Shown here piece after piece: positions 5,383 to 21,319 of a stretch of DNA of 21,319 bases. The DNA comes from a virus. The stretch lies in IMG/VR virus record IMGVR_UViG_3300044972_002084, positions 1 to 21,319 of that record, one strand, 5' to 3'. The notes under the pieces were generated by a model. The model was not told the origin of the DNA, made no database searches, and saw only the letters and a list, made by a program, of their open reading frames with translations. The first letter of the stretch is position 1. Each line of letters opens with the position of its first letter. The translations under genes were made by a program, and so were the position numbers.

Positions 5383-5577
5383 ATGAAGTATTTTAAATTA
5401 TTCTTGATGTGTCTTGGATTTATCGTAATCACATCAATGTTTGGCGAATGGATCGTCAGTCGAGAAGTTAATGGGTTCCTCCAGCTTTTAAGTTTCGTTG
5501 GGGTGTGTGGAATCTTTATTTATATAGTAAACGAAACAATAAGTATTTTATTTAAAAACAAAAAACAAAATGATTAG
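5383..5577 (+). CDS. Small two-span membrane protein, 64 aa
   Basis: Two hydrophobic segments (about residues 5-25 and 32-57) followed by a short basic tail (KNKKQND) predict a small inner-membrane protein with two spans. The ATG follows an A-rich leader (AAATAAAAAAAGA) just after the tRNA array. Its last 8 nt overlap the start of the SPFH gene, so the two products are probably made together and may act together at the membrane. No family is recognised. A holin-like protein cannot be excluded on topology, but the lysis genes are elsewhere. Confidence 0.7.
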   Translation: MKYFKLFLMCLGFIVITSMFGEWIVSREVNGFLQLLSFVGVCGIFIYIVNETISILFKNKKQND

Positions 5578-6517
5578 TACCGTAATTTTTTTAGTAGGCT
5601 TAGTAATTGCAGCATTTGTCGCATTTACAACAAGAGATGTAATGTATAGCGTAGAAAAAGATCGTTGGGGCGATGACAAAGAAACCCTGAATATGAGATG
5701 GTTGTTCAAACCGCTTGGCATCTTAGTAGGAGGTTTATTAATTTCAATATTTCAACCTTTTTCACTTGAAAGAGTAGATGCAGGCCATGTCGGTATCAAA
5801 GTTAACTTGACTGGTGATAATCGCGGAGTATCTAGTTATGAATACAAGACAGGTTGGGTGATGTATAATACCTGGACTGAACAGATGTTAGAGTTTCCAA
5901 CATTCCAGCAGCATATTGAATACAAGGATCAGCAAGTGATTACTAAAGGCGGGTTTGCATCAACAATTAAACCGTCATTTAACTATTCCCTAAAACCCGC
6001 TGCAATCGGTAACATGTTTGAGAATCTACGACTAGATATTAAACAGATCGAACAAGGCTGGCTGATGAATGCTATTGTATCTTCAGTAAATGATGTAGCC
6101 AATAAATGGGAAGTAGATGCCATCTTTAATAAACGTGAGGAATTTGAGGCAGCTATTGTAACTGAATGTAATAAAAGGTTATCTAAGTGGTTCACAGTAT
6201 CACAGCTAAGAACAAATATCATACCTCCAGCATCACTACAAAAAGCAATTGAGGGTAAAACAAAAGCAGTTCAAGAAGCTCAAGCCGCTCAACAAAGAAC
6301 ACTAGTTGCCGAGGCAGAAGCTAAAGAAAAGATTGCAATTGCAAAAGGCGACTCTGCAAAAGTTATTATTGATGCTCAAGCATTGGCACTGGCGATGAAA
6401 TTAAAACAAAAAGAGATCACACCTCTGTATGTAGAATACCTAAAAGCACAGAGTTGGAATGGGGTATTGCCAAGCACAGTAGCTGGTGGTTCTGGAACAT
6501 TCCTAAACATCAAATAA
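5570..6517 (+). CDS. SPFH / prohibitin (band 7) family membrane protein
   Basis: Likely a membrane-anchored scaffold that forms ring-like assemblies, as prohibitins, stomatins and HflK/C do. Two hydrophobic stretches (about residues 3-20 and 47-64) anchor it. An SPFH-type domain follows (about 66-220, starting LERVDAGHVGIKVNL, a typical family opening). A long Ala/Glu/Lys-rich coiled coil (about 225-270, EAQAAQQRTLVAEAEAKEKI) and a Gly-rich tail GGSGTFLNIK complete it. The length of 315 aa is normal. It overlaps the small membrane protein by 8 nt and ends 5 nt before the PRPP-synthetase-like gene. SPFH proteins are known in large phages but their role is unclear; membrane protection or protease control are guesses. 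Confidence 0.88.
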   Translation: MISTVIFLVGLVIAAFVAFTTRDVMYSVEKDRWGDDKETLNMRWLFKPLGILVGGLLISIFQPFSLERVDAGHVGIKVNLTGDNRGVSSYEYKTGWVMYNTWTEQMLEFPTFQQHIEYKDQQVITKGGFASTIKPSFNYSLKPAAIGNMFENLRLDIKQIEQGWLMNAIVSSVNDVANKWEVDAIFNKREEFEAAIVTECNKRLSKWFTVSQLRTNIIPPASLQKAIEGKTKAVQEAQAAQQRTLVAEAEAKEKIAIAKGDSAKVIIDAQALALAMKLKQKEITPLYVEYLKAQSWNGVLPSTVAGGSGTFLNIK

Positions 6518-6522
6518 CACAA

Positions 6523-7431
6523 ATGGAAAAGACATTAAATTTAGTAAACCCAAACGATGTATTGTCTTGTAAGTATAAAATTAGTAGATTTCCTGATGGA
6601 CAACAGTCCATCAGGATTCTTGAACATGAATACACAACGTATAATAGTCTAATGGAGCAGTCTACTTCGATCTTTATTAAATCAAGATTAAATACTTTTC
6701 AAGATTTAGAACTCATTATATGTGCAAATCAAGCATTAAAAGAGATTGGCGTAAAAAGCGTAAAACTATATATCCCATATTGTATCGGAGGAAGAAGCGA
6801 TAGAAAGTTTCAAGAAGGTGGAATTAACTACATTAAAACAGTAATTGCACCGATCCTTAATTCACAAAACTTTGATGGTGTTAGTATTATGGATCCGCAT
6901 TCAGATGTTTTAGAAGCGTGCATTAACAATTTTGTAAAATTAGATAATTTTTATTTAGGTTCAATGGCGTTAAAGGACATCTATGGGAATAAGTACAATC
7001 ACGAAGATATTTGTCTAGTCTCACCGGATGCTGGAGCATATAAAAAAGTTTTTGATTTTGCTTCTAAGTACGGCATTAAGAATATTATTACTGCCGCGAA
7101 AGTACGGGATATGGAAACTGGAGAGATTATTAGAACAGAAGTACCTAATCTTCATATTGCTGACCTTGACCACGAACTTAAATACGTTATCGTTGATGAT
7201 ATTTGTGATGGAGGAAGAACATTTATTGAGTTAGCAAAAGTTATTAGAAAGCTAAGACCTAACTCAGAAATTTATTTAGTAGTCACTCACGGAATATTCA
7301 GTGCAGGATTTGGGGAGTTAGGGGAATACTTTGACGGAATTTATACTACTAACTCAATTAAAAACATTTCAAATATGGGTACATCATCAACCCTTAAACC
7401 AATTAATTTTAAACAATTTAATATATTCTAA
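6523..7431 (+). CDS. prs: PRPP synthetase family enzyme (ribose-phosphate pyrophosphokinase, or ADP-ribose pyrophosphokinase)
   Basis: Transfers pyrophosphate from ATP to a ribose-5-phosphate-type substrate. Family marks are FPDGQ (23-27), MDPHSD (123-128, in place of the DLHA metal site), SPDAGAYKK (167-175), AAKVRD (191-196, with the Lys and Arg of the catalytic loop) and the PRPP-binding VDDICDGGRT (224-233). The start chosen is the ATG at 6523, 5 nt after the SPFH stop; an in-frame upstream start would run inside that gene. Length is 302 aa, close to the family's ~315. The next gene starts 1 nt after the stop and encodes a NAMPT-like enzyme. The pair either makes NMN (PRPP plus nicotinamide) or, as in the NARP1 pathway of phages, makes ADP-ribose pyrophosphate for direct NAD+ synthesis. 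Sequence alone does not separate the two here. Confidence 0.9.
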   Translation: MEKTLNLVNPNDVLSCKYKISRFPDGQQSIRILEHEYTTYNSLMEQSTSIFIKSRLNTFQDLELIICANQALKEIGVKSVKLYIPYCIGGRSDRKFQEGGINYIKTVIAPILNSQNFDGVSIMDPHSDVLEACINNFVKLDNFYLGSMALKDIYGNKYNHEDICLVSPDAGAYKKVFDFASKYGIKNIITAAKVRDMETGEIIRTEVPNLHIADLDHELKYVIVDDICDGGRTFIELAKVIRKLRPNSEIYLVVTHGIFSAGFGELGEYFDGIYTTNSIKNISNMGTSSTLKPINFKQFNIF

Positions 7432-7432
7432 T

Positions 7433-9064
7433 ATGAATCCATTATTATTAACCGATGGTTATAAAACATCACACAACAAACAATATCCAGAAGGAACAAC
7501 CTTAGTGTATTCTAATTTTACGCCACGCTCAAATAGGTACGCTCCAAAGGGTTGTAACGAAGTAGTCGTATTTGGAACACAAATGGTAATGATGCAAATA
7601 CACGAGACATTCCAAAAAGATTTCTTTGATAAACCGAAAGATGAGGTTTGTGGAGAAATGAAACGTGAGCTGTCAATGTATTTGGGTATAGACTATGATG
7701 TGTCACACTTTGAAGCATTATGGGACCTGCAATATTTACCGATCATAGTCAAATCATTACCTGAAGGAACAAAGGCACCAATCAAGGTTCCAGTAATGAC
7801 AATCTATAACACACATCCTGATTTCTATTGGATCACCAATTACTTGGAAACAATCCTTTCAAACCTATTGTGGAAACCAATGACCTCTGCAACTATCGCT
7901 CATCAGTATCGTAAGGTACTAACTGAATGGATGGAGAAAACTGACAAAACAAATCACCAATTTATTGATTGGCAAGGTCACGATTTCTCAATGCGAGGTA
8001 TGGATTCAGTTGAGGCAGTTATTAGTTCAGGATTAGGTCACTTAACATCATTCTTAGGGACCGATTCTCTACCTACAATTTATGGGGCACGTAAATATTA
8101 TGGAGCAGAAGGATTTGTTGCAGCATCTGTTCCTGCAACTGAGCACTCAGTAATGTGTGCTGGTGGTAAAGAAGATGAAGTAGCCACATTTCGAAGATTG
8201 TTAAATACTTATCCAACAGGAATCTTATCAGTAGTATCTGACACTTGGGACTTATGGAAAGTATGTACTGAGCATATCATTACTTTGAAAGAAGAGATTC
8301 TAGCTCGTGATGGTAAGTTAGTTATTCGTCCTGACTCAGGTGACCCAGTTGATATTCTTTGCGGAGCTTATAATACTATTAGCTCAGGTGATGAGCAAAA
8401 TTTAGATCATAACTATCCCAAGTATGGCGTAGAAAAAGATAGTCCAGAATACAAAGGTGTCATTGAACTTCTTTGGGACGTATTTGGTGGAACAGTTAAC
8501 GAACAAGGTTATAAAGTTCTTGATCCACATATTGGGGCAATCTATGGAGATTCTATTACAATTGATAGAGCTAACGAAATTTGTGCAAGACTAGAAGCAA
8601 AAGGGTTTGCATCAACAAACGTTGTATTAGGCATTGGCTCATTCACTTATCAGTACAATACTAGAGACACGTTTGGTTTTGCAATGAAAGCAACGTACGT
8701 TGAAGTTAAGCATTGGGATGTTGCAACAGAAAGACTTAATGAGTCCTTCGGTAAAAATGCAAATCCTGAATGGGTTGAAGGAAGAGAAATCTTCAAAGAT
8801 CCAATCACAGATGATGGTACTAAGAAGTCTGCAACCGGTTTATTAAGTGTCCATAATCATGACGGCAAATATGTTTTAATTGATCGTTGTACTTGGGAAG
8901 GTGAATCAGTTAGTTCGTTTCAACCAATTTATAAAAACGGAAAGTTCTTCAATGTGACAACGCTAAGTGAAATTAGAGAAAAGTTAGCACATTCTAACAA
9001 CAAAAAATTAGTTACTAAAGTTCTTGAAATGGCAAACTTGATTCACAAGAGTAAAAATAAATAA
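7433..9064 (+). CDS. nadV: Nicotinamide phosphoribosyltransferase family enzyme (NadV/NAMPT, or Namat-type)
   Basis: Joins nicotinamide to an activated ribose: PRPP to give NMN, or ADP-ribose pyrophosphate to give NAD+ in NARP1-type phage systems. Residues matching the NAMPT active site are visible: YKTSHNKQYP near the start, HDFSMRGM (183-190, with R188 at the human R196 position), GTDSL (D211), ATEHSV (H238, the phosphorylated-His position), VVSDTWDLW (268-275) and VIRPDSGDP (297-305, with R299 and D301). The start is the ATG at 7433, 1 nt after the preceding stop; a longer frame would lie inside that gene. Length is 543 aa, slightly longer than human NAMPT. It is the last gene of the operon and is followed by a tRNA-like gene and hairpins. 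Confidence 0.93.
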   Translation: MNPLLLTDGYKTSHNKQYPEGTTLVYSNFTPRSNRYAPKGCNEVVVFGTQMVMMQIHETFQKDFFDKPKDEVCGEMKRELSMYLGIDYDVSHFEALWDLQYLPIIVKSLPEGTKAPIKVPVMTIYNTHPDFYWITNYLETILSNLLWKPMTSATIAHQYRKVLTEWMEKTDKTNHQFIDWQGHDFSMRGMDSVEAVISSGLGHLTSFLGTDSLPTIYGARKYYGAEGFVAASVPATEHSVMCAGGKEDEVATFRRLLNTYPTGILSVVSDTWDLWKVCTEHIITLKEEILARDGKLVIRPDSGDPVDILCGAYNTISSGDEQNLDHNYPKYGVEKDSPEYKGVIELLWDVFGGTVNEQGYKVLDPHIGAIYGDSITIDRANEICARLEAKGFASTNVVLGIGSFTYQYNTRDTFGFAMKATYVEVKHWDVATERLNESFGKNANPEWVEGREIFKDPITDDGTKKSATGLLSVHNHDGKYVLIDRCTWEGESVSSFQPIYKNGKFFNVTTLSEIREKLAHSNNKKLVTKVLEMANLIHKSKNK

Positions 9065-9116: not shown

Positions 9117-9201
9117 GGTCAGGTGGTGTAATTGGTAACACGTTCCTAATTTAATATGGTGAATACCAGGATTAGTACAGGTTCGAATCCTGTCCTGACA
9201 A
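9117..9201 (+). tRNA. Isolated tRNA-like gene with ~13-nt anticodon-loop insert
   Basis: Acceptor GGTCAGG pairs with CCTGACA at six of seven positions. The D-arm GTG-TAATTGGTAA-CAC resembles Bacteroidota tRNA-Gln, and the T-arm ACAGG-TTCGAAT-CCTGT is identical to those of the main array. The anticodon stem TTCCT (9143-9147) / AGGAT (9168-9172) has four good pairs and encloses 20 nt instead of 7, with an internal TGGT-GAAT-ACCA hairpin. A 4-nt variable loop follows. The anticodon is unresolved. Confidence 0.55.
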
Positions 9202-9211
9202 CAAAAATATG

Positions 9212-9439: not shown

Positions 9440-11086
9440 TTGGCGCCTTTTCATAAACTTGCAGCAATTGCTGTAAAAAAACTATCAAATTTTAAAATTT
9501 CCGGTATTATCGCGCTTTTGATAATGTCGATATTCTTTACGTTAAAGACCTTCGTTACTCTTGATATACTTGAATATTCACGAACGATAGGATTTATTGA
9601 ATACGTGTGTTTTATTTCTCTATGTATACCTGGATACTTTATAGTAAAACAGTTTTTAGACACTAGAAAAGAAATAAATCAATATGCACTTGACGAATTT
9701 AAAACTTTTGTGAACACCGCCGCTCTTGTTTCAATGGCTGATGCTAAAGGCAAGATCACCTACGTAAATGATAAATTCACAAAGGTTTCTGGATGGAGCC
9801 TGGAAGAAGTTCTAGGTCAGGACCACTCAATCGTAAACTCAGACACTCAGCCAGAAGGATATTGGGGAAAAATGTATGCTGATGTCCTAGCTGGAAAAAT
9901 ATGGAATGATGTTGTAACAAATAAAGCAAAGGACGGCTCAGTATATTATGTAGATACTTATATTAAAGCACAGTTCGACCTTTCTGGTAAACTTGAAGGA
10001 TTTATGTCAATTCGTCAAGACGTTACTGATTTGAAAAGAACTGAAAATGAAATATCTAATCGAATGAATGCGATTAACCGGTCAAATGCGGTTATTGAAT
10101 TTGATCTAGATGGAAACATAAAATTTGCGAATAGCCTATTCCTAAAAACGTTGGGTTATTCTTCACATGATGAACTTGTTGGAAAACACCATAACATATT
10201 TGTGGAAGATGAATTAAAGGATACTCGAGAGTATTTAGACCTTTGGGAGAATTTAAAATCCGGTAAATTCTTTACAGGTGAAGTTACTCGAAAGAAAAAA
10301 GACGGATCGGTCGTCTATCTTCAAACAACGTATAATCCAATCATAGGTGAAGATGGGCAACCTTATCGAATAATGAAAATTGCAACTGATATTACTAAGA
10401 GTTATAATCAGCAGGCTGAGATTGAAAAAAAGAATACATATCTTGAACATGCTGCAAAAATCTTACGTCATGACATGCACAGCGGAATCAATACATATAT
10501 TCCTAGAGGATTAAGTTCATTAGAGAGAAGATTAAGCGAGGATCAGGTAAAAGATCTTAAGATTGAATCACCGTTAAAAATGATTAAGGAAGGACTACGA
10601 CACACGCAAAAAGTATATAAAGGGGTTTATGAATTTACTAATCTAGTAAAAAAGGACGTGATTTTAAATAGGGTTGAGTGCAACATTAAAGACATTCTCG
10701 GAGACTATCTTTCCTCGACTGCATATCAATCGCAAGTAATAATTTCAGACTTGGGTCAGTCTAATATAAATGAAGCTCTCTTCTGCACTGCACTGGATAA
10801 CCTAATCAGGAACGGGTTAAAATATAACGATAGCCTCACTAAGTGGGTAAAGATCTCAAGAGAAGAAGATTCAATCATAGTAGAAGATAACGGTAGAGGC
10901 ATGAGCTACGAAGATTTTAAATTATTATCAAAACCTTATACTCGAAGGGAGGGACAGAAAGAAAGTGGGACCGGTTTAGGTTTAAATATATGCGTAGCAA
11001 TATTGGATGAGCACAACTTTTCAATTACATGCAGTAAGTTAGATGATGGGGGAACACGACTAAAAATAAATATTAAAAATGATTGA
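9440..11086 (+). CDS. Membrane-bound PAS-PAS sensor histidine kinase
   Basis: A complete sensor kinase. Two membrane spans (about residues 20-42 and 50-72) are followed by a first PAS domain (about 85-200). This resembles the FAD-binding PAS of Aer, ending GFMSIRQDVTDLK. A second PAS (about 210-320) has the HHNIF and YNPIIGEDGQPYRIMKIATDIT signatures. The H-box is LRHDMHSG with H344, the N-box is DNLIRNGLKYN (453-463), G1 is EDNGRGM (482-488) and G2 is GTGLGL (510-515), so ATP binding and autophosphorylation look intact. The only plausible start is TTG at 9440 (or ATT at 9434), because a stop lies just upstream. The response regulator gene overlaps its end by 8 nt. Sensor kinases are rare in phages. 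Redox or energy sensing is inferred only from the Aer-like PAS. Confidence 0.92.
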   Translation: MAPFHKLAAIAVKKLSNFKISGIIALLIMSIFFTLKTFVTLDILEYSRTIGFIEYVCFISLCIPGYFIVKQFLDTRKEINQYALDEFKTFVNTAALVSMADAKGKITYVNDKFTKVSGWSLEEVLGQDHSIVNSDTQPEGYWGKMYADVLAGKIWNDVVTNKAKDGSVYYVDTYIKAQFDLSGKLEGFMSIRQDVTDLKRTENEISNRMNAINRSNAVIEFDLDGNIKFANSLFLKTLGYSSHDELVGKHHNIFVEDELKDTREYLDLWENLKSGKFFTGEVTRKKKDGSVVYLQTTYNPIIGEDGQPYRIMKIATDITKSYNQQAEIEKKNTYLEHAAKILRHDMHSGINTYIPRGLSSLERRLSEDQVKDLKIESPLKMIKEGLRHTQKVYKGVYEFTNLVKKDVILNRVECNIKDILGDYLSSTAYQSQVIISDLGQSNINEALFCTALDNLIRNGLKYNDSLTKWVKISREEDSIIVEDNGRGMSYEDFKLLSKPYTRREGQKESGTGLGLNICVAILDEHNFSITCSKLDDGGTRLKINIKND

Positions 11087-11510
11087 TTCAATTTTATTAG
11101 TAGATGATGAAAGTTTATTCCACTTAGTGTTTGAGGATGCGTGTAGTTTGCTTGATATTTCGTTATCTTTACAGAGCATCGACAGTTCAGATGAGGCTGC
11201 TCGAATGTTTGAAGAGTGGCAAAAAAATCCAGCAGGTCGACCTGACTGTGTATTTGTTGACTTAAACATCGTCGGCTCATCGTTTGACGGAATAGAATTA
11301 ACGCGTAAGATTAATTTTGAATATGGAAATCATGTAGTTATTGGGATCATTTCATCATCTAATGAGCCAGAAGAACAGGCAAAAGCTCTTCAGGCAGGCG
11401 CACAATTTTGGATTATTAAATCGGATGAGATCGAGCCTAGACTCGAAGAATTTAGAAACGATTATGAATCATATCGAAATAGAACTGCCTCATTTAAAAT
11501 ATACAAATAA
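11079..11510 (+). CDS. Single-domain response regulator (CheY-like receiver)
   Basis: A stand-alone receiver domain of 143 aa with the full phosphorylation site: acidic pair D9-D10 in LLVDDE, phospho-acceptor D61 in VFVDLNI, Ser in GIISSSN (92-93) and K114 in WIIKSD. There is no DNA-binding or enzymatic output domain, so it should act by protein contact, as CheY does. It overlaps the kinase gene by 8 nt and its TAA shares a base with the ATG of the next gene (TAATG), so the three are translationally coupled. The kinase is the obvious phosphodonor. The target is unknown; the next product, a coiled-coil membrane protein, or the holin candidate are the natural guesses. Confidence 0.92.
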   Translation: MIDSILLVDDESLFHLVFEDACSLLDISLSLQSIDSSDEAARMFEEWQKNPAGRPDCVFVDLNIVGSSFDGIELTRKINFEYGNHVVIGIISSSNEPEEQAKALQAGAQFWIIKSDEIEPRLEEFRNDYESYRNRTASFKIYK

Positions 11511-13280: not shown

Positions 13281-13520
13281 ATGGAAAAAGGAGAGCGCTT
13301 CATATTCTATGGCAAATCGGGTGTGGTTAAAGGAACCGTCGCTAGTTCTTTTGAAAAGGTGACATATGATCTTAAGCACGAGGTAAAAGTCATAACTCAG
13401 TATATCGTCTCGACCAATGGCGAGACGTATAATGAAAAGATGTGTTTAAAGATTAAATCGGACATACCTAAGTCCTTCTTAAGAAAACTAGTGAGTCTAT
13501 TTAAGCGAGTCTCTTCTTGA
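13281..13520 (+). CDS. Hypothetical protein, 79 aa
   Basis: Unrecognised basic protein with beta-rich composition (RFIFYGKSGVVKGTVASSF, then KVITQYIVSTNGETY) and a basic C-terminal helix (KSFLRKLVSLFKRVSS). It lies after the lysis terminator. Its last 20 nt overlap the 3' end of the convergent minus-strand gene, so transcription from the two sides meets here. Read-through or a weak promoter would be needed for expression. Confidence 0.6.
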   Translation: MEKGERFIFYGKSGVVKGTVASSFEKVTYDLKHEVKVITQYIVSTNGETYNEKMCLKIKSDIPKSFLRKLVSLFKRVSS

Positions 13521-14364
13521 TCTCTTTGACTGTACCAACTTCACTTAAAAGTATTCTAAAGTTCTCTATCATTACGTTAGTCATAATCGGACTCTCAATA
13601 TCGCTTTTGGATGATTGTGACAGAATTTCTTTTTGGAATGCAAGAGTCTCCTTTAATTTCTCATCAGGCTCCAGTGATTTGATTCTTTGAAGCCTATCTG
13701 TGACCTGCTTGTTAATTTCTTCAAGATTAGGAGTACTTTCTGATTCTAAGTATTTAGGTAACACTGATTTTACCGCGAAGTACCTTAAATATTCATTGAG
13801 TTGCTTAGTAAGAGCCGATACTTTTGACTCATCTGAACTGTATATTAACTCAAAAAATTCGGAGGCGGTCGGTCTAATAAACTGGTGATTGTATGCTGAA
13901 AAAGGCACTGCCGTCTTTTGAGCAGTAGTATTTAATAGCATATCCAGGTCAGTAGTTAATTGTAGTGAATATCTAATTTGAACTGAGTCGTCTCTATGAG
14001 TAAACTTATTCGGATAAACTGAACCCCTTAACTGGGTGAAAAGATTAGTATATGAGATCTTTTTAAAAGGACCGGCTTGGCTATTTGAACTTGCTGGGTG
14101 CACTAGATTGATGACAACGTCTTGGGATTCTCCATAAACTGATGAAAGTATCTCGTCTTGGCTTGAATGTAGAGTCAGGGTAAAAGGTCCTCTACCCTCA
14201 GAAATCTCATACATTGATTCAGGCAGACCCTTTAATATTTCTCTAAGCTCTTGATCATATACTTCATCGATCTCAGTGAGTTCACGCTTAGGTATCTCAA
14301 AGGTATAATAACTCTTTTGAGACTCGTTTAATGTGATCCAATATTTAAAGTCAAGTAACTCCAT
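13501..14364 (-). CDS. Candidate packaged head protein with cleavable N-terminal signal, 287 aa
   Basis: The first 15 residues, MELLDFKYWITLNES, match the pattern aromatic-x-x-W-x-x-L-N-E seen in its neighbours. They look like the capsid-targeting propeptide of T4 internal proteins, which the prohead protease cuts after (L/I)-x-E; here that would be after E14. The rest is soluble, with a beta-rich middle (FTLTLHSSQDEILSSVYGE, RYSLQLTTDLDML) and a helical C-terminus. No enzymatic motif is recognised. Its ATG overlaps the stop of the 119-aa gene (TAATG), so it is the last gene of a coupled three-gene unit. If packaged, it would enter the host with the DNA. Confidence 0.72.
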   Translation of the reverse strand: MELLDFKYWITLNESQKSYYTFEIPKRELTEIDEVYDQELREILKGLPESMYEISEGRGPFTLTLHSSQDEILSSVYGESQDVVINLVHPASSNSQAGPFKKISYTNLFTQLRGSVYPNKFTHRDDSVQIRYSLQLTTDLDMLLNTTAQKTAVPFSAYNHQFIRPTASEFFELIYSSDESKVSALTKQLNEYLRYFAVKSVLPKYLESESTPNLEEINKQVTDRLQRIKSLEPDEKLKETLAFQKEILSQSSKSDIESPIMTNVMIENFRILLSEVGTVKEIKKRLA

Positions 14365-14723
14365 TAATAATTTAAGAATTCTAAGCCCTTTGAAGCAAGC
14401 AGGTCAAATACAGAGTCTGCCGAGTCTTCGTATATAATAACTTCACCTATGCTAAGTACGGCTAGGTTTCGATCCAGGTCAAGTTCCATGTGATAATCTA
14501 ATCCAGAATAATTAAATTTAAACTTGATTATCCCTTCCCTTACCTGTAACCTTACCTCTTCTGCTCCAGACTCTTCTAGATATTCCTGGATGCGATGTGC
14601 GTGATCAATTATTTGATATTCATGTCCATCTTCGCGAGGTGCCTCAAAGTCCTGAAGCTCACCAGAATCGTCGATGTATGCTTCATTGATAAATTGCTGA
14701 TATGTCTTAGCTCGGAAGTTCAT
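14364..14723 (-). CDS. Candidate packaged head protein with T4-type propeptide, 119 aa
   Basis: The N-terminus contains KTYQQFINEAY, very close to the T4 internal-protein signal MKTYQEFIAEA. Predicted cleavage is after E14 (I-N-E). The mature part is acidic, with a DSGELQDFEAPREDGHEYQ stretch, a helix (YLEESGAEEVRLQ), beta-like segments (FKFNYSGLDYHMELDLD) and the C-terminal LLASKGLEFLNY. It is coupled to both neighbours by TAATG overlaps. Function after injection is unknown. Confidence 0.78.
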   Translation of the reverse strand: MNFRAKTYQQFINEAYIDDSGELQDFEAPREDGHEYQIIDHAHRIQEYLEESGAEEVRLQVREGIIKFKFNYSGLDYHMELDLDRNLAVLSIGEVIIYEDSADSVFDLLASKGLEFLNY

Positions 14724-16927
14724 TAAAAATCAGTGGCTATGCTCCATCTTTGAAAACTTGGAGAACTATTAGCAGCATAAAGAAGCTGGAAAGTATAAGT
14801 ATCGCTTAATGTGTCTCCCAAAAATGTTCCGTAAAAAGAATCATCATCTACGACGGTATCACCAACCTCTAGGGTAAACATATCCGTAATAGTTTTAAGA
14901 CTTGTCGTATATCGTTTTTTATCCTCAGCAGTGATTGAAGTGCTTGCGTTTACTCGTAGTGTAATACTATTAACTTCAGGTTGCCATTTAGATTTCCAGC
15001 GTGGCATGAGTTTGTTATCCCAGGCCTCAGATTCCTGATCGTTACCCCAAGTACCAGTGCCACTATATTCACCAAAGTTAGCTTCGCCTTGTCCTTTCTT
15101 AACGTCAATATAAGTATAAATACTTGTTCCAAGTGCTTTTAGTGCTGCATCAATTTCAGCAGTTGTTGCTTGTGTTATTGTTTTAGGCTTAGCTGGAGCA
15201 GCTTGTCCAGTATTTAATGGGTCGCTTCCATATACACTAGTCAAGATTTTCTGTTCTGGTGCGGACTCTTCTTTCCAATTTTTTCCTCCATCTGATGAAA
15301 CTTGCCATTTTTTAGCTGGTGTAAACCTATATCTATTTTGTTGTTTAGCCCAAATATACTTTTTCCCATCCCATGATGGTCTGATAAACCATCCTTTGCG
15401 AGTCCCAGAGATCAACTGTTGAATCACTCGCGGATCAGTTTCGACCGTATATGTAGAGTCAGATGCACCCTTCTTCTTAAAGTGCCATACTTCGTTATTC
15501 ATTCGTTTAAATTCCCAATCCTCATATTTTGGATATATTGGATTATTACCAGGTACAGTACTTTTAGCAGATGTTGAAGTCGACTTTGCCTTAGGTTTAT
15601 GTGTTGGAGTAGCACTAACGGTTGCAGCCGTTGCTGGTACACCAAGATCCTCATTAATGATTACTGAGTTACCGTCTAATCCAAGATAACTAATAGGCTT
15701 CCTAGACTCGGTAATACTTTTTAACTCATTTTGCATTCTTTTAACAAATTCAGCACTAATTGTATTAGGTTCGCGTTCATCCCAAAAAGGCTTATTTAAG
15801 CCAGTCTTTAGTACCTCAATTAGAGCAGCCGTTGTTTTGCCATAATCTCCTATTGGGCTTCCTGCTTTACCGTCTCCAGCCTTTGCCGCAAAATTAGCAT
15901 AAGCTGCAACTTTGCTCCATCCAGCGTTCTTAAGTTTAGTATAGAGAAATTTCTGGAATTTCATAAGCTCAATATTTCCTTTCATACCTAAAATAAATCC
16001 TCCTTCTGGAACCTTAATGTCTCCAGTATCAGGTGTGATTGTTTTAGCGACAGCTAGAAAAGCATCAACATCAAAGCCCGTAATTACATTGGACAGAGTC
16101 TCAACTATTCGGGTAGCTGTGAGACCTAAATAAACTTCTTTTGATTCAGGGATAGCTTGAAGCTTATCATATAGAGTCTTAGTAATATCGACTTCAAGAT
16201 CTTCTCCGAGCTGAGCGTCAAGTATTCCAAAACCTGCGTTTAAAGATTTTACAAATAATTGGGAAGCCGTACCTAATTTTTTAGCTAGAATTTCATCTTT
16301 TACTTTAACCATAAGAGGAGTATTAAACGCAAGAGTCTCCTTTTTAATCTTTTTATAAGCGCTAATAATAAATTGGATTACTTCAGCTTTCGTTGCATTG
16401 AGGATACCTGCAGAAGCGTACGGTAGAGTAAATGTAGGTGCACTTTTATCAATAACTATATTGGAACCGCCTTTAACATTTAATAGTGTTCCGGTTAACG
16501 CTAATTGAAGTTCATTGCGTTTAACAAATCTAACCTGTGGATTGATTCCACCAGTCACGGCTTGATTACTTCCTTGAAGCGAAATCTTACTAACGATTGT
16601 AAACATGATTACCTGTTTTCTATCAGTATCTTTACTTACGTCATAAATAACGATATTTGTATCTAGCTTATTTAACCCAGGATAGTATTCTATTAACTTA
16701 GGTTGAGATTTTATCCATTCTAAAATAGCATCAAATCCTTCAACTGTTAATTTATCATTTGCGTCGATAACGTCCGCATCATTTACTATTTTTAGTTTTA
16801 ATGTTTGTTTGTCAACTGGGATAGCAACTACTTTATTGCTATTATCTCCACGTTCTCTTATTCGGCCTAGTTTATCGTCTTCATTTAAGTTTTTCCAATC
16901 TCCGAATTTTTGAATGATATGGCTCAT
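14723..16927 (-). CDS. Large candidate packaged head protein, 734 aa
   Basis: The N-terminus, KFGDWKNLNEDDK, fits the shared propeptide pattern, with predicted cleavage after E16 (L-N-E). A large first part (to about residue 420) is followed by a second I-N-E site (SVIINEDLG), then a Ser/Thr/Pro/Lys/Ala linker (SATPTHKPKAKSTSTSAKS). A Trp-rich part follows (YEDWEFKRMNNEVWHFKKKG and GWFIRPSWDGKKYIW), then a C-terminal acidic/beta region. The segment around KFLYTKLKNAGW to GDYGKTTAALIEVLK resembles peptidoglycan-binding repeats, but weakly. It has its own AGATAAATAATAAAAA motif upstream. No catalytic function is recognised. It could be an internal head protein or a cleaved structural protein. 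Confidence 0.75.
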   Translation of the reverse strand: MSHIIQKFGDWKNLNEDDKLGRIRERGDNSNKVVAIPVDKQTLKLKIVNDADVIDANDKLTVEGFDAILEWIKSQPKLIEYYPGLNKLDTNIVIYDVSKDTDRKQVIMFTIVSKISLQGSNQAVTGGINPQVRFVKRNELQLALTGTLLNVKGGSNIVIDKSAPTFTLPYASAGILNATKAEVIQFIISAYKKIKKETLAFNTPLMVKVKDEILAKKLGTASQLFVKSLNAGFGILDAQLGEDLEVDITKTLYDKLQAIPESKEVYLGLTATRIVETLSNVITGFDVDAFLAVAKTITPDTGDIKVPEGGFILGMKGNIELMKFQKFLYTKLKNAGWSKVAAYANFAAKAGDGKAGSPIGDYGKTTAALIEVLKTGLNKPFWDEREPNTISAEFVKRMQNELKSITESRKPISYLGLDGNSVIINEDLGVPATAATVSATPTHKPKAKSTSTSAKSTVPGNNPIYPKYEDWEFKRMNNEVWHFKKKGASDSTYTVETDPRVIQQLISGTRKGWFIRPSWDGKKYIWAKQQNRYRFTPAKKWQVSSDGGKNWKEESAPEQKILTSVYGSDPLNTGQAAPAKPKTITQATTAEIDAALKALGTSIYTYIDVKKGQGEANFGEYSGTGTWGNDQESEAWDNKLMPRWKSKWQPEVNSITLRVNASTSITAEDKKRYTTSLKTITDMFTLEVGDTVVDDDSFYGTFLGDTLSDTYTFQLLYAANSSPSFQRWSIATDF

Positions 16928-16943
16928 AGTGATGGGCTTATTA

Positions 16944-16959
16944 TTTTTATTATTTATCT
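16944..16959 (-). promoter_or_regulatory. AGATAAATAATAAAAA motif upstream of the 734-aa gene
   Basis: Exact copy on the minus strand of the motif before the histidine kinase. It ends 16 nt before the ATG at 16927 and overlaps the last codons and stop of the upstream 115-aa gene (the GAT AAA TAA codons). Confidence 0.5.
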
Positions 16960-17297
16960 GAGATCCCAGCCTCAGTTTTATGTAGATCTTCCCAATATTG
17001 ATTAAATGCTTTCTGCATAGAATCTTTTTCGTCGACCGTTAATGCTCTACCCTCATTTTCCCAAACGGTTACGACTATTTCCTGCAAGTCCGGAGTCAGA
17101 CTGTGCCATGTTAATATCTCTAATCCGTTAGAGTCGATCATTCTTTCAAACCTGATAGCATAATCACAAAAGCTTCGTAGTGTTGGACAATCCTCCTTTC
17201 TTACGTGTTGAGTCAATAGTGTAAACCATGAGTGGTGGTGTTGGCTAGTTTCCCATTTCTCGAGAAAATCTAGACGGTCAGTATCAGTAAATTTCAT
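16950..17297 (-). CDS. Hypothetical protein, 115 aa
   Basis: Unrecognised helical, acidic protein with many Trp and His residues (LEKWETSQHHHSWFTLLTQH). It lacks the (L/I)-N-E propeptide of its neighbours, so it is probably not packaged by that route. Its ATG faces the divergent sigma factor gene across a 98-nt AT-rich spacer. Its stop region contains the promoter-like motif for the 734-aa gene. Confidence 0.7.
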   Translation of the reverse strand: MKFTDTDRLDFLEKWETSQHHHSWFTLLTQHVRKEDCPTLRSFCDYAIRFERMIDSNGLEILTWHSLTPDLQEIVVTVWENEGRALTVDEKDSMQKAFNQYWEDLHKTEAGISDK

Positions 17298-17395
17298 ATT
17301 TTTCTTTTATTTTATTTAAACTCTTAATTTTTTTTTAGTTCTTTAATCAACCGGACAATAGTTAATATTTAAAAACAACCATTAATTTTAAAATT
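17298..17395. promoter_or_regulatory. Divergent AT-rich intergenic spacer, probable promoters
   Basis: A 98-nt spacer between a minus-strand gene and the plus-strand sigma factor. It includes TTAATATTTAAAAAC before the GTG of the sigma gene. On the minus strand, GTTTAAATAAAATAAAAG lies before the 115-aa gene and loosely resembles the AGATAAATAATAAAAA motif. Two outward promoters are expected; exact sites cannot be fixed. Confidence 0.4.
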
Positions 17396-18292
17396 GTGAG
17401 ACAATTAAAAATCACATCGGATCGAATGACTAATCGAACTGAAAACATTTCAAGATACTTCACTGAGGTTTCAGGTATCCCTATTCTTAGCTCAGATGAA
17501 GAGTTTGAGATTGGAATGAGAGCTCAACAAGGAGATCCAGAAGCTATCGAAAAACTGATTTCATCGAATCTTAGATTCGTGGTCTCAGTAGCAAAACAGT
17601 ATTCTAATCCAGATGCCTCGTTAGATGACCTGATTTGTCAAGGCAATATTGGTCTTTGTGACGCAGCTAGACAATTTGATCCAACTCGAGGCTTTAAGTT
17701 TATCTCATTTGCGGTTTGGCACATTAGAAAGGAGATACTCGTATACCTAAATTCTGAGACCCGAACAGTAAGGGTTCCTCAAAACATCTTAACTGACCTT
17801 CGAAAGATTCGAAAAGCGAATGAAATGATAATGCAGGAAGAGGGTAGGATCGGAACTGCAGTTGAGCTTGAAGAAAGAATATCTCAATTCTCGAACAAGG
17901 AGATAACTGCTGATAAGATTCAAAAGATTATTCAAGCTGAAACCAAAGGAATAGCATTAGACGCTACTAGCACAGATGATGCTCTTTCACCGATTGATTG
18001 GTTGAGTTCTGAAATCAACACGACTAGTCTGACTGACGAATCTGACTTGACTAGAACAGTTAACCTTGCTCTATCTAAATTGACTTTGATTCAAAGGGAT
18101 GTAGTCTGTAGAAAAATGGGACTAAACGGCATGGAACCTGAACACTTTTCAACGATCGCTCGTAGGTATGAACGAACTACTGAATGGGCAAGATCGCTAT
18201 ATGTTAGATGTATTCGAATAATGTATGTAAAACTTAGAACCAATCAGGATATTCCTAATCTACTTTCTGATCAAGAGGTTTGGTCAAAGTAA
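17396..18292 (+). CDS. Sigma-70 family factor of Bacteroidota primary (SigA/RpoD) type
   Basis: Directs RNA polymerase to promoters. It begins MRQLKIT (GTG start), the same opening as the primary sigma factor of Bacteroidota from memory, which supports this start and a host origin. Region 1.2/2 is at about 17-118 (NLRFVVSVAKQY, DLICQGNIGL, GFKFISFAVWHIRKEI), region 3 at about 120-195 (RTVRVPQN onward) and region 4 at about 215-282. The region 4 helix-turn-helix reads FSTIARRYERTTEWARSLYVRCIR instead of the usual TRERVRQI type, and the region 2.4 aromatic WW is WH. Promoter specificity has therefore probably shifted. It is encoded alone on the plus strand among minus-strand late genes and converges by 22 nt with the 190-aa gene. 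It may replace a T4 gp55-like late factor. Confidence 0.92.
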   Translation: MRQLKITSDRMTNRTENISRYFTEVSGIPILSSDEEFEIGMRAQQGDPEAIEKLISSNLRFVVSVAKQYSNPDASLDDLICQGNIGLCDAARQFDPTRGFKFISFAVWHIRKEILVYLNSETRTVRVPQNILTDLRKIRKANEMIMQEEGRIGTAVELEERISQFSNKEITADKIQKIIQAETKGIALDATSTDDALSPIDWLSSEINTTSLTDESDLTRTVNLALSKLTLIQRDVVCRKMGLNGMEPEHFSTIARRYERTTEWARSLYVRCIRIMYVKLRTNQDIPNLLSDQEVWSK

Positions 18293-18843
18293 CCTTTACG
18301 AGTATTACGCTTAACTGAGAATCGTGGATCGTCGAAGTCAATGTGATCAAGGATCCACCTCATAGCAACCCGATAGAACTGATCACCTGGTACAAAATTT
18401 AACCGCTTGATCCCAATATCCATTGAACCGATTCCATATGGAGACCTGCCTCGAACTCCCATAGGTATTCCCTTTGGCATCATTCGACGTATCAACATTA
18501 TTTCAGGAAAGAGACCGATTGCGTACCCATTATGTCGACGATACCCAGGATATGCAAATATGATGCTACCGTTTAGTAACTGAGTTCTAGACGACACAAG
18601 CTCAAGCCCTTTTTCTTGGAGTTCTCGATATTCTGGTAATTGAGTGATTTCCGCAAGTTTTGGGTCGTGCTTAATTAGAGCAGCAGACCCTTTCCCTTTA
18701 AGAAAATCACGAATTTCTTGTTGATCGACCATGCCAAGGTCAGCCAATTGGCGAAGATCCTCAATCTTTTGAGTTATCTCTTCTTCTGACTCGTTCTCAA
18801 ACAGGCTAGACCATTCCTTAAAACCGGCTACGAAATTCTTCAA
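18271..18843 (-). CDS. Candidate packaged head protein with N-terminal signal, 190 aa, TTG start
   Basis: The N-terminus is MKNFVAGFKEWSSLFENE. Its F-x-x-W-x-x-L-x-E pattern matches the neighbours, with predicted cleavage after E16 (L-F-E). The only possible start is TTG, because a TAA lies just upstream. The C-terminal half contains GSIIFAYPGYRRHNGYAIGLFPEIMLIRR and a Gly/Arg-rich PMGVRGRSPYGIGSMDIG stretch; I do not recognise the fold. It is preceded by the AGATAAATAATAAAAA motif and a terminator hairpin, so it is probably its own transcription unit. Its 3' end overlaps the sigma factor gene on the other strand. Confidence 0.72.
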   Translation of the reverse strand: MKNFVAGFKEWSSLFENESEEEITQKIEDLRQLADLGMVDQQEIRDFLKGKGSAALIKHDPKLAEITQLPEYRELQEKGLELVSSRTQLLNGSIIFAYPGYRRHNGYAIGLFPEIMLIRRMMPKGIPMGVRGRSPYGIGSMDIGIKRLNFVPGDQFYRVAMRWILDHIDFDDPRFSVKRNTRKGYFDQTS

Positions 18844-18852
18844 GACTTAAGT

Positions 18853-18868
18853 TTTTTATTATTTATCT
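18853..18868 (-). promoter_or_regulatory. AGATAAATAATAAAAA motif upstream of the 190-aa gene
   Basis: Third exact copy of the 16-mer. It ends 9 nt before the TTG start at 18843 and lies just after a terminator hairpin, which suits a promoter. Confidence 0.55.
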
Positions 18869-18878
18869 AAGACAAGCA

Positions 18879-18933
18879 AGCCCGAACTCTCGCTCGGGCT
18901 GACCGTAAATCGCCTAGGGTAGCAGACGATTTA
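18879..18933 (-). terminator. Tandem hairpins, terminator for the upstream minus-strand genes
   Basis: AGCCCGA (18879-18885) pairs with TCGGGCT (18894-18900) around an 8-nt loop, followed on the minus strand by T-rich TTGCTTGTCTT. A second perfect hairpin, TAAATCG (18906-18912) with CGATTTA (18927-18933), overlaps the end of the 134-aa gene. Confidence 0.7.
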
Positions 18934-19335
18934 GATTAATCCTAATTCTCTAAGCATGTCATCAGCGCTCTTTTCGTGACGAGCTTCATCACCGGAAAGT
19001 TGCTTATATCTCTTGATTTCCATGATATCGTGCTTAGTAAGTTCCCTATTGTCCATGCTAAGTAGTGGATAGATTTGTTTAAAGTACTTTGCCCAAACGG
19101 GTTTCATCTTTTTAAAGATGAGTCCCTTTAGTTCAGAGTTATCATATAGATCCATCATGCCGTGAAACCAAATCATTAGCGCACTGGTCTGAAGTCGACC
19201 GTTTGCTGCATCTACTTCAAAGTCAGCAGTTAGTGTATCTGCTCTTTCAATAATTTCTTTTTCCTGATCATCGCTCTCGTTTAGTCGAATCCAAGTATTA
19301 AAATTTTCTACGCATCTGTGTCGAGTCATAGCCAT
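18931..19335 (-). CDS. Candidate packaged head protein with N-terminal signal, 134 aa
   Basis: The N-terminus contains NFNTWIRLNESDD, matching the F-x-x-W-x-x-L-N-E pattern, with predicted cleavage after E20. An ATG at residue 3 is an alternative start and would place the motif at the usual distance. The mature part is helical and charged, rich in Met and Trp (MIWFHGMMDLYDNSELKG), ending DMLRELGLI. The upstream leader contains AGAATAAATAAAAATAAAAC, a variant of the promoter-like motif. Terminator hairpins follow. No known function. Confidence 0.72.
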   Translation of the reverse strand: MAMTRHRCVENFNTWIRLNESDDQEKEIIERADTLTADFEVDAANGRLQTSALMIWFHGMMDLYDNSELKGLIFKKMKPVWAKYFKQIYPLLSMDNRELTKHDIMEIKRYKQLSGDEARHEKSADDMLRELGLI

Positions 19336-19344
19336 GTTTTATTT

Positions 19345-19707
19345 TTATTTATTCTTGTTTCGTATGAGTAATTCTCCGATCACCTCTATCTTACCGACAA
19401 GTCTCTGAAACTCTACCTGTTCTAATTTAATCTTGCCTGAAGTTCCACGAGCTAGGTCCTTTACTAACGTGTTTAATTCAGACTCAAAGGATTTTAGATC
19501 AAGCTTGCCAGAGGCTGCCTTCTTGTAATAAGGAAGCTTTACCACGAAATGTTGATAGGTAAGTAGAGCAGAACCACCTTTTGCCTTAGCTGCATCTGAG
19601 ATTTTGGTTGCTCCTTCTAGACGAGCCTTTGCGAACTCTTCAAAGGTTAAGTCTTGAGTCTTGGCCTCATTAATAAAGAGGGAATAGGCTTTAATTAGGT
19701 CTTGCAT
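19345..19707 (-). CDS. Candidate packaged head protein with T4-type propeptide, 120 aa
   Basis: The N-terminus is MQDLIKAYSLFINEAKTQD. YSLFINEA aligns with the T4 internal-protein signal YQEFIAEA, with predicted cleavage after E14 (I-N-E). The mature part is a basic, helical protein (LTFEEFAKARLEGATK, KLPYYKKAASGKLDLKS, ending LLIRNKNK), a composition common in T4 internal proteins that bind DNA in the head. It lies 9 nt before the next gene in the transcription direction. Confidence 0.76.
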   Translation of the reverse strand: MQDLIKAYSLFINEAKTQDLTFEEFAKARLEGATKISDAAKAKGGSALLTYQHFVVKLPYYKKAASGKLDLKSFESELNTLVKDLARGTSGKIKLEQVEFQRLVGKIEVIGELLIRNKNK

Positions 19708-20248: not shown

Positions 20249-21319
20249 TTAAGCAATGTTTAAGCCTGCAACAGTAGTAATTACACCGCTTAGTGTTACT
20301 GCAGTTGCTGTGTTATTTGAATTAGAATTTGCAATATTTACTGGTGCTGCTCCAGTAAAGTCAACAGCCGCGTTTGTGCTACTCGTTATTACAGTAGAAT
20401 TTACTAGATTTAAGCTTCCTGTACTAGTCGTATTTAAAAACCCTAATCCATTGGATTTAATACTTGAATTTGCTACTATTGCATCATTAGCCGCACTATA
20501 TACTCCAGTTGATCCTCCCAATACTATGTTACAATTAGATATGATAGTCTTGCCTAAACCGCTATTTGATATTCTACTATCAGCCGTACCTAGTTTTGCT
20601 ATTACGTTTTGTAGTGTGGTTACACCGCTTGCTGCGTTTGAGCAAAGAGACCCATTAAAGGATCCAGATATTAATCCAGAAAAAACGGCATTGCCGCTAT
20701 TAGATATTAATGCATTTACCGTATTCGCTGATCCTAAATAGTTTATGGTACCGTTAAATACACAAGTGTTGGTAGAAACCGGCATGCTTATGATAGTTTT
20801 TCCATTTCCTGAAGTAAAATTTGTAGAAATATTCCCTGTAAAGTTTACTCTGCTATTTCCTGCCCCTCCAATATCCATGACGTTAGGAGTAGTATTATAA
20901 GAAAAATCATAGTTTCCATCAATATTAATTGTGCCTGCACCGGTACTATCTAGAAGTAGTAATCTATCTCCTAAATATGCTTGCTTAACTTTCGCATTAA
21001 CTGTTAAGTTAGCTGCTCGTATCCAAAGCAATTCGGAACGTACTTCTGCAGTATCGATCGTTAAATTTAAAATACTTCCAGGTAAGCCGGTTTGAACTCT
21101 AATACCAACGCTTAGACCAAAATTAGTCACATTTTGAAAACCGTTAAACTCTTTAGCAGTAACGGTGATCTTGCACTTATTGCCTGCACCATAATAAAGT
21201 ATAGAGCCTGAGCCAGACTGCCCTACTAAATAGTATTTTTGAATTAAATCAGCAGTTATTGTAATTGTATCAGGTTGTGCAGAAGGGTCGATCGTAGGAG
21301 TCGCTTCATTTACCATCAA
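20249..21319 (-). CDS. Beta-helix-like virion protein (fragment, N-terminus may lie outside)
   Basis: 356 visible residues, dominated by short Ser/Thr/Asn/Gly-rich repeats with regularly spaced Ile/Val/Leu (for example GNISTNFTSGNGKTIISMP, NSTVITSSTNAAVDFTG). This is typical of right-handed parallel beta-helices in phage tail fibres, tailspikes and adhesins. No catalytic residues can be named. The frame is open to the window edge. An ATG at 21316 could be the start, but the gene may extend beyond. Its position beside candidate virion genes fits a surface or tail protein. Confidence 0.68.
   Translation of the reverse strand: MMVNEATPTIDPSAQPDTITITADLIQKYYLVGQSGSGSILYYGAGNKCKITVTAKEFNGFQNVTNFGLSVGIRVQTGLPGSILNLTIDTAEVRSELLWIRAANLTVNAKVKQAYLGDRLLLLDSTGAGTINIDGNYDFSYNTTPNVMDIGGAGNSRVNFTGNISTNFTSGNGKTIISMPVSTNTCVFNGTINYLGSANTVNALISNSGNAVFSGLISGSFNGSLCSNAASGVTTLQNVIAKLGTADSRISNSGLGKTIISNCNIVLGGSTGVYSAANDAIVANSSIKSNGLGFLNTTSTGSLNLVNSTVITSSTNAAVDFTGAAPVNIANSNSNNTATAVTLSGVITTVAGLNIA

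What the first reader, a model, noticed from the sequence alone, without database searches (positions are those of the whole stretch)
13501..19707. Cluster of candidate injected proteins sharing T4-like capsid-targeting propeptides
Six proteins (287, 119, 734, 190, 134 and 120 aa) start with one of two related patterns, Y-x-x-F-I-N-E-A or F-x-x-W-x-x-L-(N/F)-E, at residues 6-21. T4 internal proteins carry MKTYQEFIAEA, cut by the gp21 prohead protease after (L/I)-x-E. The bodies of the six proteins are otherwise unrelated and unrecognised. That is the expected signature of a packaged arsenal delivered with the DNA, possible anti-defence or takeover effectors.
Basis: partly seen in the sequence, partly recalled or inferred. 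Interest (0 to 1): 0.87.

Follow-up and report, generated by a model that had tools for sequence, protein, structure and literature searches.

The report
T4-like head-cargo tags on phage proteins
Six neighbouring, mutually unrelated proteins of an uncultured relative of phage T4 start with the same short address label that T4 uses to load proteins into its head and then cuts off; relatives of this phage put the label on a dozen or more different proteins each, some of them recognisable enzymes, which suggests a large set of proteins delivered with the DNA.

Summary
All six proteins carry [Y/F]-x-x-[F/W]-(x-x)-[L/I]-x-E ending at residue 14-20; a seventh (93 aa) has a weaker copy. The bodies are mutually unrelated. 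In 5-7 relatives per family the two aromatics and the Glu persist while bodies diverge. These are the positions that mutagenesis assigned to targeting (Y4, F7) and processing (I8, E10) in T4 IPIII (PMC9026906).

A gp21-type (S77) protease is over cut-off in 8 of 21 portal-sharing records; one 207-kb contig (G021) holds both the protease and most of the syntenic module. Across 392 protein families in this clade the tag occurs at about 37 N-termini versus 4.7 expected. Tagged proteins include enzymes (Nudix, lysozyme, CHAP), but also a conserved neck-region family, so the tag marks head interior, not "effector" as such.

In all seven protease genes read, the protease is fused to a scaffold of about 11 tandem 14-residue repeats (Y-x-x-Y-[LIV]-A-E) that resemble the tag.

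Packaging, cleavage and ejection remain inferred. Verdict: a T4-type capsid-targeting system, unusually expanded; effector function unproven.

The parts
13501..14364 (-). 287-aa tagged protein; predicted propeptide residues 1-14 (nt 14323-14364), cut LNE14|S15
   Evidence: homologs in L128, L129, L130, L131, G001 and G021 keep the aromatic pair and the Glu
14364..14723 (-). 119-aa tagged protein; propeptide residues 1-14 (nt 14682-14723), KTYQQFINE14|A15, identical at 8 of 10 positions to KTYQEFIAEA of T4 IPII/IPIII; mature body acidic (pI 4.2, charge -17)
14723..16927 (-). 734-aa tagged multidomain protein; propeptide residues 1-16 (nt 16880-16927), LNE16|D17
15707..15709 (-). codon of E407 in the 734-aa protein: internal ITE|S site, E-S invariant in all seven homologs, in a low-confidence (probably flexible) linker; candidate internal cleavage site
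18271..18843 (-). 190-aa tagged protein (TTG start); propeptide residues 1-16 (nt 18796-18843), LFE16|N17; AlphaFold2 gives residues 1-16 pLDDT below 50 and a folded body after them
18931..19335 (-). 134-aa tagged protein; propeptide residues 1-20 (nt 19276-19335), LNE20|S21
19345..19707 (-). 120-aa tagged protein; propeptide residues 1-14 (nt 19666-19707), INE14|A15; body has homologs in other T4-like phages including Flavobacterium phage immuto
19953..20234 (-).
16950..17297 (-). 115-aa protein of the same cluster without the tag (local negative, conserved in relatives)
17396..18292 (+). sigma-70-type factor gene embedded in the cluster on the other strand, in the same place in the relatives of the module; no tag

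Best explanation
The six (probably seven) proteins carry T4-type capsid-targeting propeptides. During head assembly the short N-terminal peptide binds the scaffold core through its two aromatic residues and brings the protein into the prohead. The S77 (gp21-family) protease then cuts after the Glu of [L/I]-x-E, frees the mature body in the head, and the body leaves with the DNA at infection. Shown here: the motif, its enrichment and position, its conservation in relatives while bodies diverge, the presence of an S77 protease with conserved catalytic His and Ser in relatives (one contig with both protease and module), and the unrelated bodies. Inferred from T4: scaffold binding, cleavage, packaging, ejection. 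Inferred more weakly: that the bodies act on the host.
For: Strict motif 6/32 N-termini vs 0/163 internal and none in shuffles; family-level 37 vs 4.7 expected; position peak at residues 8-17. Tag positions equal the T4 IPIII determinants Y4/F7 (targeting) and I8/E10 (processing), with gp21 specificity L/I-x-E (PMC9026906). T4 IPII/IPIII read from the T4 record: MKTYQEFIAEA. Conservation in 5-7 relatives per family. S77 over cut-off in 8/21 related records, His and Ser aligned with T4 gp21 in seven; G021 holds module and S77 in one contig. Head genes T4-like: portal phrog_213 E 6e-27, gp25-like wedge, neck adaptor; MCP related to T4 gp23 with an invariant L-A-E near residue 38. AlphaFold2 of the 190-aa protein: residues 1-16 low confidence, body folded, boundary at the predicted cut. 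Tagged proteins of relatives include stand-alone enzymes: Nudix 3e-14, lysozyme PF18013 4e-22, CHAP 5e-6.
Against: No S77 gene in the window or in the contigs of its nearest relatives; these are fragments. No virion proteomics. The tag is also on a conserved neck-region family, so not every tagged protein is cargo for the host. Tenacibaculum phage PTm1, with a similar protease, has 0/57 tags in 50 kb, and a 636-kb megaphage 0/44 in 42 kb, so the tag set does not go with every such protease.
Confidence: 0.85

Rival explanations
1. The tag is a head-targeting signal, but most tagged proteins are structural or assembly parts of the head core (like T4 gp67/gp68), degraded or kept in the capsid, not delivered effectors.
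For: A 147-aa tagged family sits beside the neck-adaptor and portal genes in nearly all relatives; the 734-aa protein has conserved internal [LIV]-x-E sites in probably flexible linkers, as expected of a core protein that is cut up.
Against: The window's bodies diverge strongly between relatives and in G021 the module lies far from the head genes; tagged relatives include complete enzyme domains (Nudix, lysozyme, CHAP) hard to explain as scaffold.
Confidence: 0.3
2. The peptide is a docking helix for another phage structure (baseplate, membrane, replication compartment), unrelated to the prohead.
For: Only sequence resemblance links it to the T4 signal; two dialects of different spacing exist; several tagged proteins have peptidoglycan-related domains.
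Against: Aromatic pair, branched residue and Glu coincide with the mapped T4 determinants; relatives encode S77 protease and T4-like head genes; tail and replication genes of the 176-kb relative are nearly untagged.
Confidence: 0.08
3. Chance or compositional coincidence.
For: Short motif; the wider patterns are post hoc.
Against: 0/163 internal hits, none in shuffles, family-level excess of about 8-fold, and conservation across relatives.
Confidence: 0.01

Closest known systems
T4 internal proteins IPI/IPII/IPIII and Alt with the capsid targeting sequence, cut by gp21
   Same: Ten-to-twenty-residue N-terminal peptide with aromatic residues at i and i+3, then [L/I]-x-E|; unrelated, fast-evolving bodies; S77 protease and T4-like portal and MCP in relatives
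   Different: A second dialect with two extra residues (F-x-x-W-x-x-L-N-E); 12-16 tagged proteins in each of three relatives (80-207 kb) by a conservative pattern, versus 3 hits in T4 by the same pattern, two of them real IPs; enzymes among them; not all bodies basic (119-aa body pI 4.2)
phiKZ/SPN3US inner-body and ejection proteins
   Same: Many proteins carried in the head, with propeptides removed by a prohead protease (PMC5694885, PMC10052503, abstracts)
   Different: Here the residue two before the Glu is L/I/V and the protease of relatives is of the T4-like S77 type; propeptides are short
Prohead core scaffolding protein and protease of Tenacibaculum phage PTm1 and of large Bacteroidota phages (bS21 phages, moraphages, Lak)
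   Same: S77 protease homologous to that of the relatives; protease and scaffold in one chain is also annotated in PTm1 and seen in megaphage LR756504
   Different: No tagged cargo set was found in the PTm1 or LR756504 stretches tested; no paper found describes the repeats or the tags

Membership tests
T4-type capsid-targeted internal head proteins | Short N-terminal peptide with the targeting aromatics (T4 IPIII Y4, F7) | tested here: met
   6/6 proteins and nearly all homologs; determinants from PMC9026906
T4-type capsid-targeted internal head proteins | [L/I]-x-E cleavage site directly after the peptide | tested here: met
   6/6; it is the first [LIV]-x-E in each protein
T4-type capsid-targeted internal head proteins | gp21 (S77) prohead protease in the same phage | tested here: inconclusive
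   Absent from the 21-kb window fragment; present in 8/21 related records, including G021 which also holds the module
T4-type capsid-targeted internal head proteins | T4-like head genes (portal, MCP) in the same phage | tested here: inconclusive
   Met in relatives; the window fragment does not reach the head genes
T4-type capsid-targeted internal head proteins | Mature protein in the virion, N-terminus right after the Glu | not testable with these tools
   needs virion proteomics
T4-type capsid-targeted internal head proteins | Ejected into the host with the DNA | not testable with these tools
   needs an infection assay
phiKZ-like inner-body proteins | phiKZ-type cleavage motif (S/A-x-E, recalled from general knowledge) | tested here: not met
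   the residue two before the Glu is L or I in all six and L/I/V in nearly all homologs
Peptidase S77 (protease of the relatives) | Pfam PF03420 over cut-off and catalytic His and Ser conserved | tested here: met
   8 records, E about 1e-12; DHP and SSR aligned with NHP and SSR of T4 gp21 in seven

The most novel reading that the evidence does not exclude
In this clade the cargo label is a copy of the scaffold's own building unit. The protease and scaffold are one chain whose roughly 11 tandem 14-residue repeats (Y-x-x-Y-[LIV]-A-E-x-[LV]-N-x-S-I-x) each contain the aromatic-aromatic-aliphatic-x-Glu pattern of the tag. Any protein that acquires one unit at its start would be built into the core and released by the same protease, which would explain how these phages came to carry a dozen or more unrelated proteins, including enzymes, in the head.
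Probability: 0.35. Interest if true: 0.8.

Novelty: new variant of a known kind. Interest (0 to 1): 0.62.

Why it matters
T4 delivers a handful of head proteins; for most phages of environmental Bacteroidota no delivered proteins are known. A readable address label turns genome sequence into a list of candidate delivered proteins, mostly of unknown fold, and so into a testable set of possible counter-defence or takeover factors. A scaffold whose repeat resembles the label would explain how the set grows and could serve as a modular packaging handle.

Tried and rejected
(1) PF03420 in the window, G001 and the nearest relatives: not found, but these are fragments; the control in T4 worked. (2) A scaffold-repeat scoring matrix as an independent predictor of cargo: weak (p 0.002-0.01 in G015/G021, nothing in the window or G001), although T4 IPII and IPIII are the top two of 233 T4 ORFs; so scaffold mimicry is kept only as a hypothesis. 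An earlier version of that script used a faulty pattern (12 repeats only) and is discarded. (3) C-terminal tag-like ends (E|S...F-x-x-F): enriched over all ORFs but not at family level, 4.7 vs 2.8; not claimed. (4) Folds: the 190-aa model (pLDDT 76) and the 734-aa model (pLDDT 60) match no PDB fold at E < 0.001; sequence profiles against PDB gave nothing credible. (5) De novo motif search: the motif was recovered in G001 only; too loose to use elsewhere. (6) DNA and protein look-up of the window in phage records: no near relative. (7) The retropepsin-like (Zn_protease), cyclase and P-loop proteins of G001 have only degenerate tags and are not in the counts.

Full report
The window is a 21.3-kb uncultured virus fragment with no near match among phage records. 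The finding covers a run of - strand genes; the first three overlap by one base.

Observation. The six named proteins do start with the two related patterns; the motif Glu is residue 14, 14, 16, 16, 20 and 14 and is in each case the first [LIV]-x-E of the protein. The 93-aa protein next to them has a weaker copy. The 115- and 65-aa proteins do not.

Relatives. The sigma factor gene led to an 80-kb contig, G001, with the same gene order and homologs that keep the motif. Searches with the 119-aa and 734-aa families gave nearer relatives G014 (128 kb), G023 (140 kb), G025, G026, G024, and again the 207-kb contig G021. In 5-7 homologs per family the first aromatic, the second aromatic and the Glu are among the most conserved N-terminal positions, in families whose mean body conservation is 0.48-0.75. 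Bodies of the six families are unrelated to each other.

What the motif is. T4 IPII and IPIII start MKTYQEFIAEA. Amber-suppressor work placed targeting at residues 4 and 7 and processing at 8 and 10, and gp21 cuts after L/I-x-E (PMC9026906). The 119-aa protein reads KTYQQFINE|A. The tag therefore matches at the functional positions. This is a positional test of the resemblance, not proof of cleavage.

The protease. G001 ends inside a T4-like portal gene, with gp25-like and neck-adaptor genes beside it. A portal search gave 80 loci. Of 21 of these records examined, 8 encode PF03420 over cut-off; T4 rang in the control. In seven genes read in full the His and Ser of T4 gp21 align, and the chain continues for about 450 residues. 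G021 holds the protease (52.9-54.9 kb) and homologs of the 287-, 119-, 734- and 120-aa proteins (193.6-200.6 kb) in one contig.

The scaffold. After the protease domain lie about 11 tandem 14-residue repeats; 76 were read in seven genomes: Y/F/H at position 1, Y/H at 4, mostly L/V/I at 5, mostly A/S at 6, and E at 7 in 68 of 76. The pattern resembles Y-x-x-F-I-x-E of the tag. A 636-kb megaphage has the same kind of repeat (YSEYIAE). A matrix from the repeats ranks T4 IPIII and IPII first and second among 233 T4 ORFs, but it does not pick out the tagged proteins of this clade well. So shared ancestry or mimicry is possible and not established.

Scale. A slightly wider pattern hits 14/143 (G001), 16/214 (G015, 176 kb) and 12/246 (G021) N-termini against 0.3, 1.4 and 1.1 expected, and 77/1027 in portal loci against 5.4. 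With one random member per family it is 37 of 392 families against 4.7. Degenerate tags are missed, so these are probably lower bounds. Tagged proteins with domains: Nudix (G015:168117), lysozyme PF18013 (G015:11511), a weak nucleotidyltransferase match (G001:71183), CHAP (L128:3703), peptidoglycan-binding (G015:36236, G021:170558 and 201322); a class III nucleotidyl cyclase (G001:62588, E 9e-23) starts MKYLVSYPIWES, a degenerate tag. A tagged 147-aa family beside the neck adaptor is nearly universal, so the tag is not a mark of effectors alone.

Structure. AlphaFold2 of the 190-aa protein gives residues 1-16 below pLDDT 50 and a folded body from about residue 20, so the predicted cut falls at the boundary. 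The 734-aa model is poor (pLDDT 60), but its low-confidence segments 1-32, 234-285 and 406-467 contain the tag and the internal [LIV]-x-E sites, one of which (E407-S408) is invariant in seven homologs. Internal cutting is plausible, not shown.

Host. MCP relatives among isolates mostly infect Bacteroidota (Flavobacterium, Tenacibaculum, Chryseobacterium, Prevotella), with Sphingomonas phage PAU as an exception, and the starts of the cluster mostly have AT-rich upstream sequence without a clear Shine-Dalgarno. Large T4-related Bacteroidota phages have been described (PMC12619734, PMC9723584); no mention of such tags was found in the passages searched.

Conclusion. T4-type capsid-targeting propeptides: about 0.85. 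Delivery of most of the six bodies into the host: about 0.6. A counter-defence or takeover role for any given body is open. It is a known mechanism in an expanded form, with a second tag dialect and with a protease-scaffold chain whose repeats resemble the tag.

Noticed in passing
window 9440-11510 (+): A PAS-domain histidine kinase (548 aa, HATPase_c E 3e-15) and a response regulator (143 aa, E 5e-11) side by side in a phage, followed by a conserved membrane-protein gene; the set is kept beside the tagged module in G001, G014, G023 and G026.
   Followed up: partly
window 17396-18292 (+): Sigma-70-type factor encoded on the opposite strand inside the tagged cluster, in the same place in the relatives of the module; possibly a late or class-specific sigma factor.
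   Followed up: partly
L097:17509-19485 (G015:55509-57485), G021:52877-54856, L142:19836: S77 protease fused to a scaffold with about 11 tandem 14-residue repeats Y-x-x-Y-[LIV]-A-E; also in a 636-kb megaphage.
   Followed up: yes
L005:11588-12289 (G001:62588-63289): Phage class III nucleotidyl cyclase (PF00211, 9e-23) whose N-terminus MKYLVSYPIWES looks like a degenerate head tag.
   Followed up: no
L115:4558-5109 (G021:194558-195109): Homolog of the 119-aa protein with an extra N-terminal domain (MPAQTISQQKLFGMALAQKRG...) and the tag FNDFVNE internal, between the two domains.
   Followed up: partly
L077:6490-7287 and L116:7965-8279: The 120-aa body recurs in a 265-aa tagged protein with spacer and extra C-terminal domain, and in Flavobacterium phage immuto with a different N-terminus (MRLLELLREA); other immuto proteins start with FDLKKFLVEN-like peptides, perhaps another tag dialect.
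   Followed up: partly
L002/L003, G001:16723-17709 and 18071-18880; G021 167184-169031 (615 aa): Several proteins end in a mirror image of the tag (NES...SFxxF[VIM]); not significant at family level.
   Followed up: partly
window 20249-21319 (-): ORF cut by the window end; its first visible residues MMVNEATP could be the end of another tag.
   Followed up: no
window 5570-9064 (+): Band 7/SPFH protein, PRPP-synthetase-like and nicotinamide phosphoribosyltransferase genes in a row, the latter two an NAD-salvage set as in other large phages.
   Followed up: no
window 9117-9202 (+): ARAGORN tRNA call with an unreadable two-base anticodon, besides Ile, Leu and Thr tRNAs.
   Followed up: no
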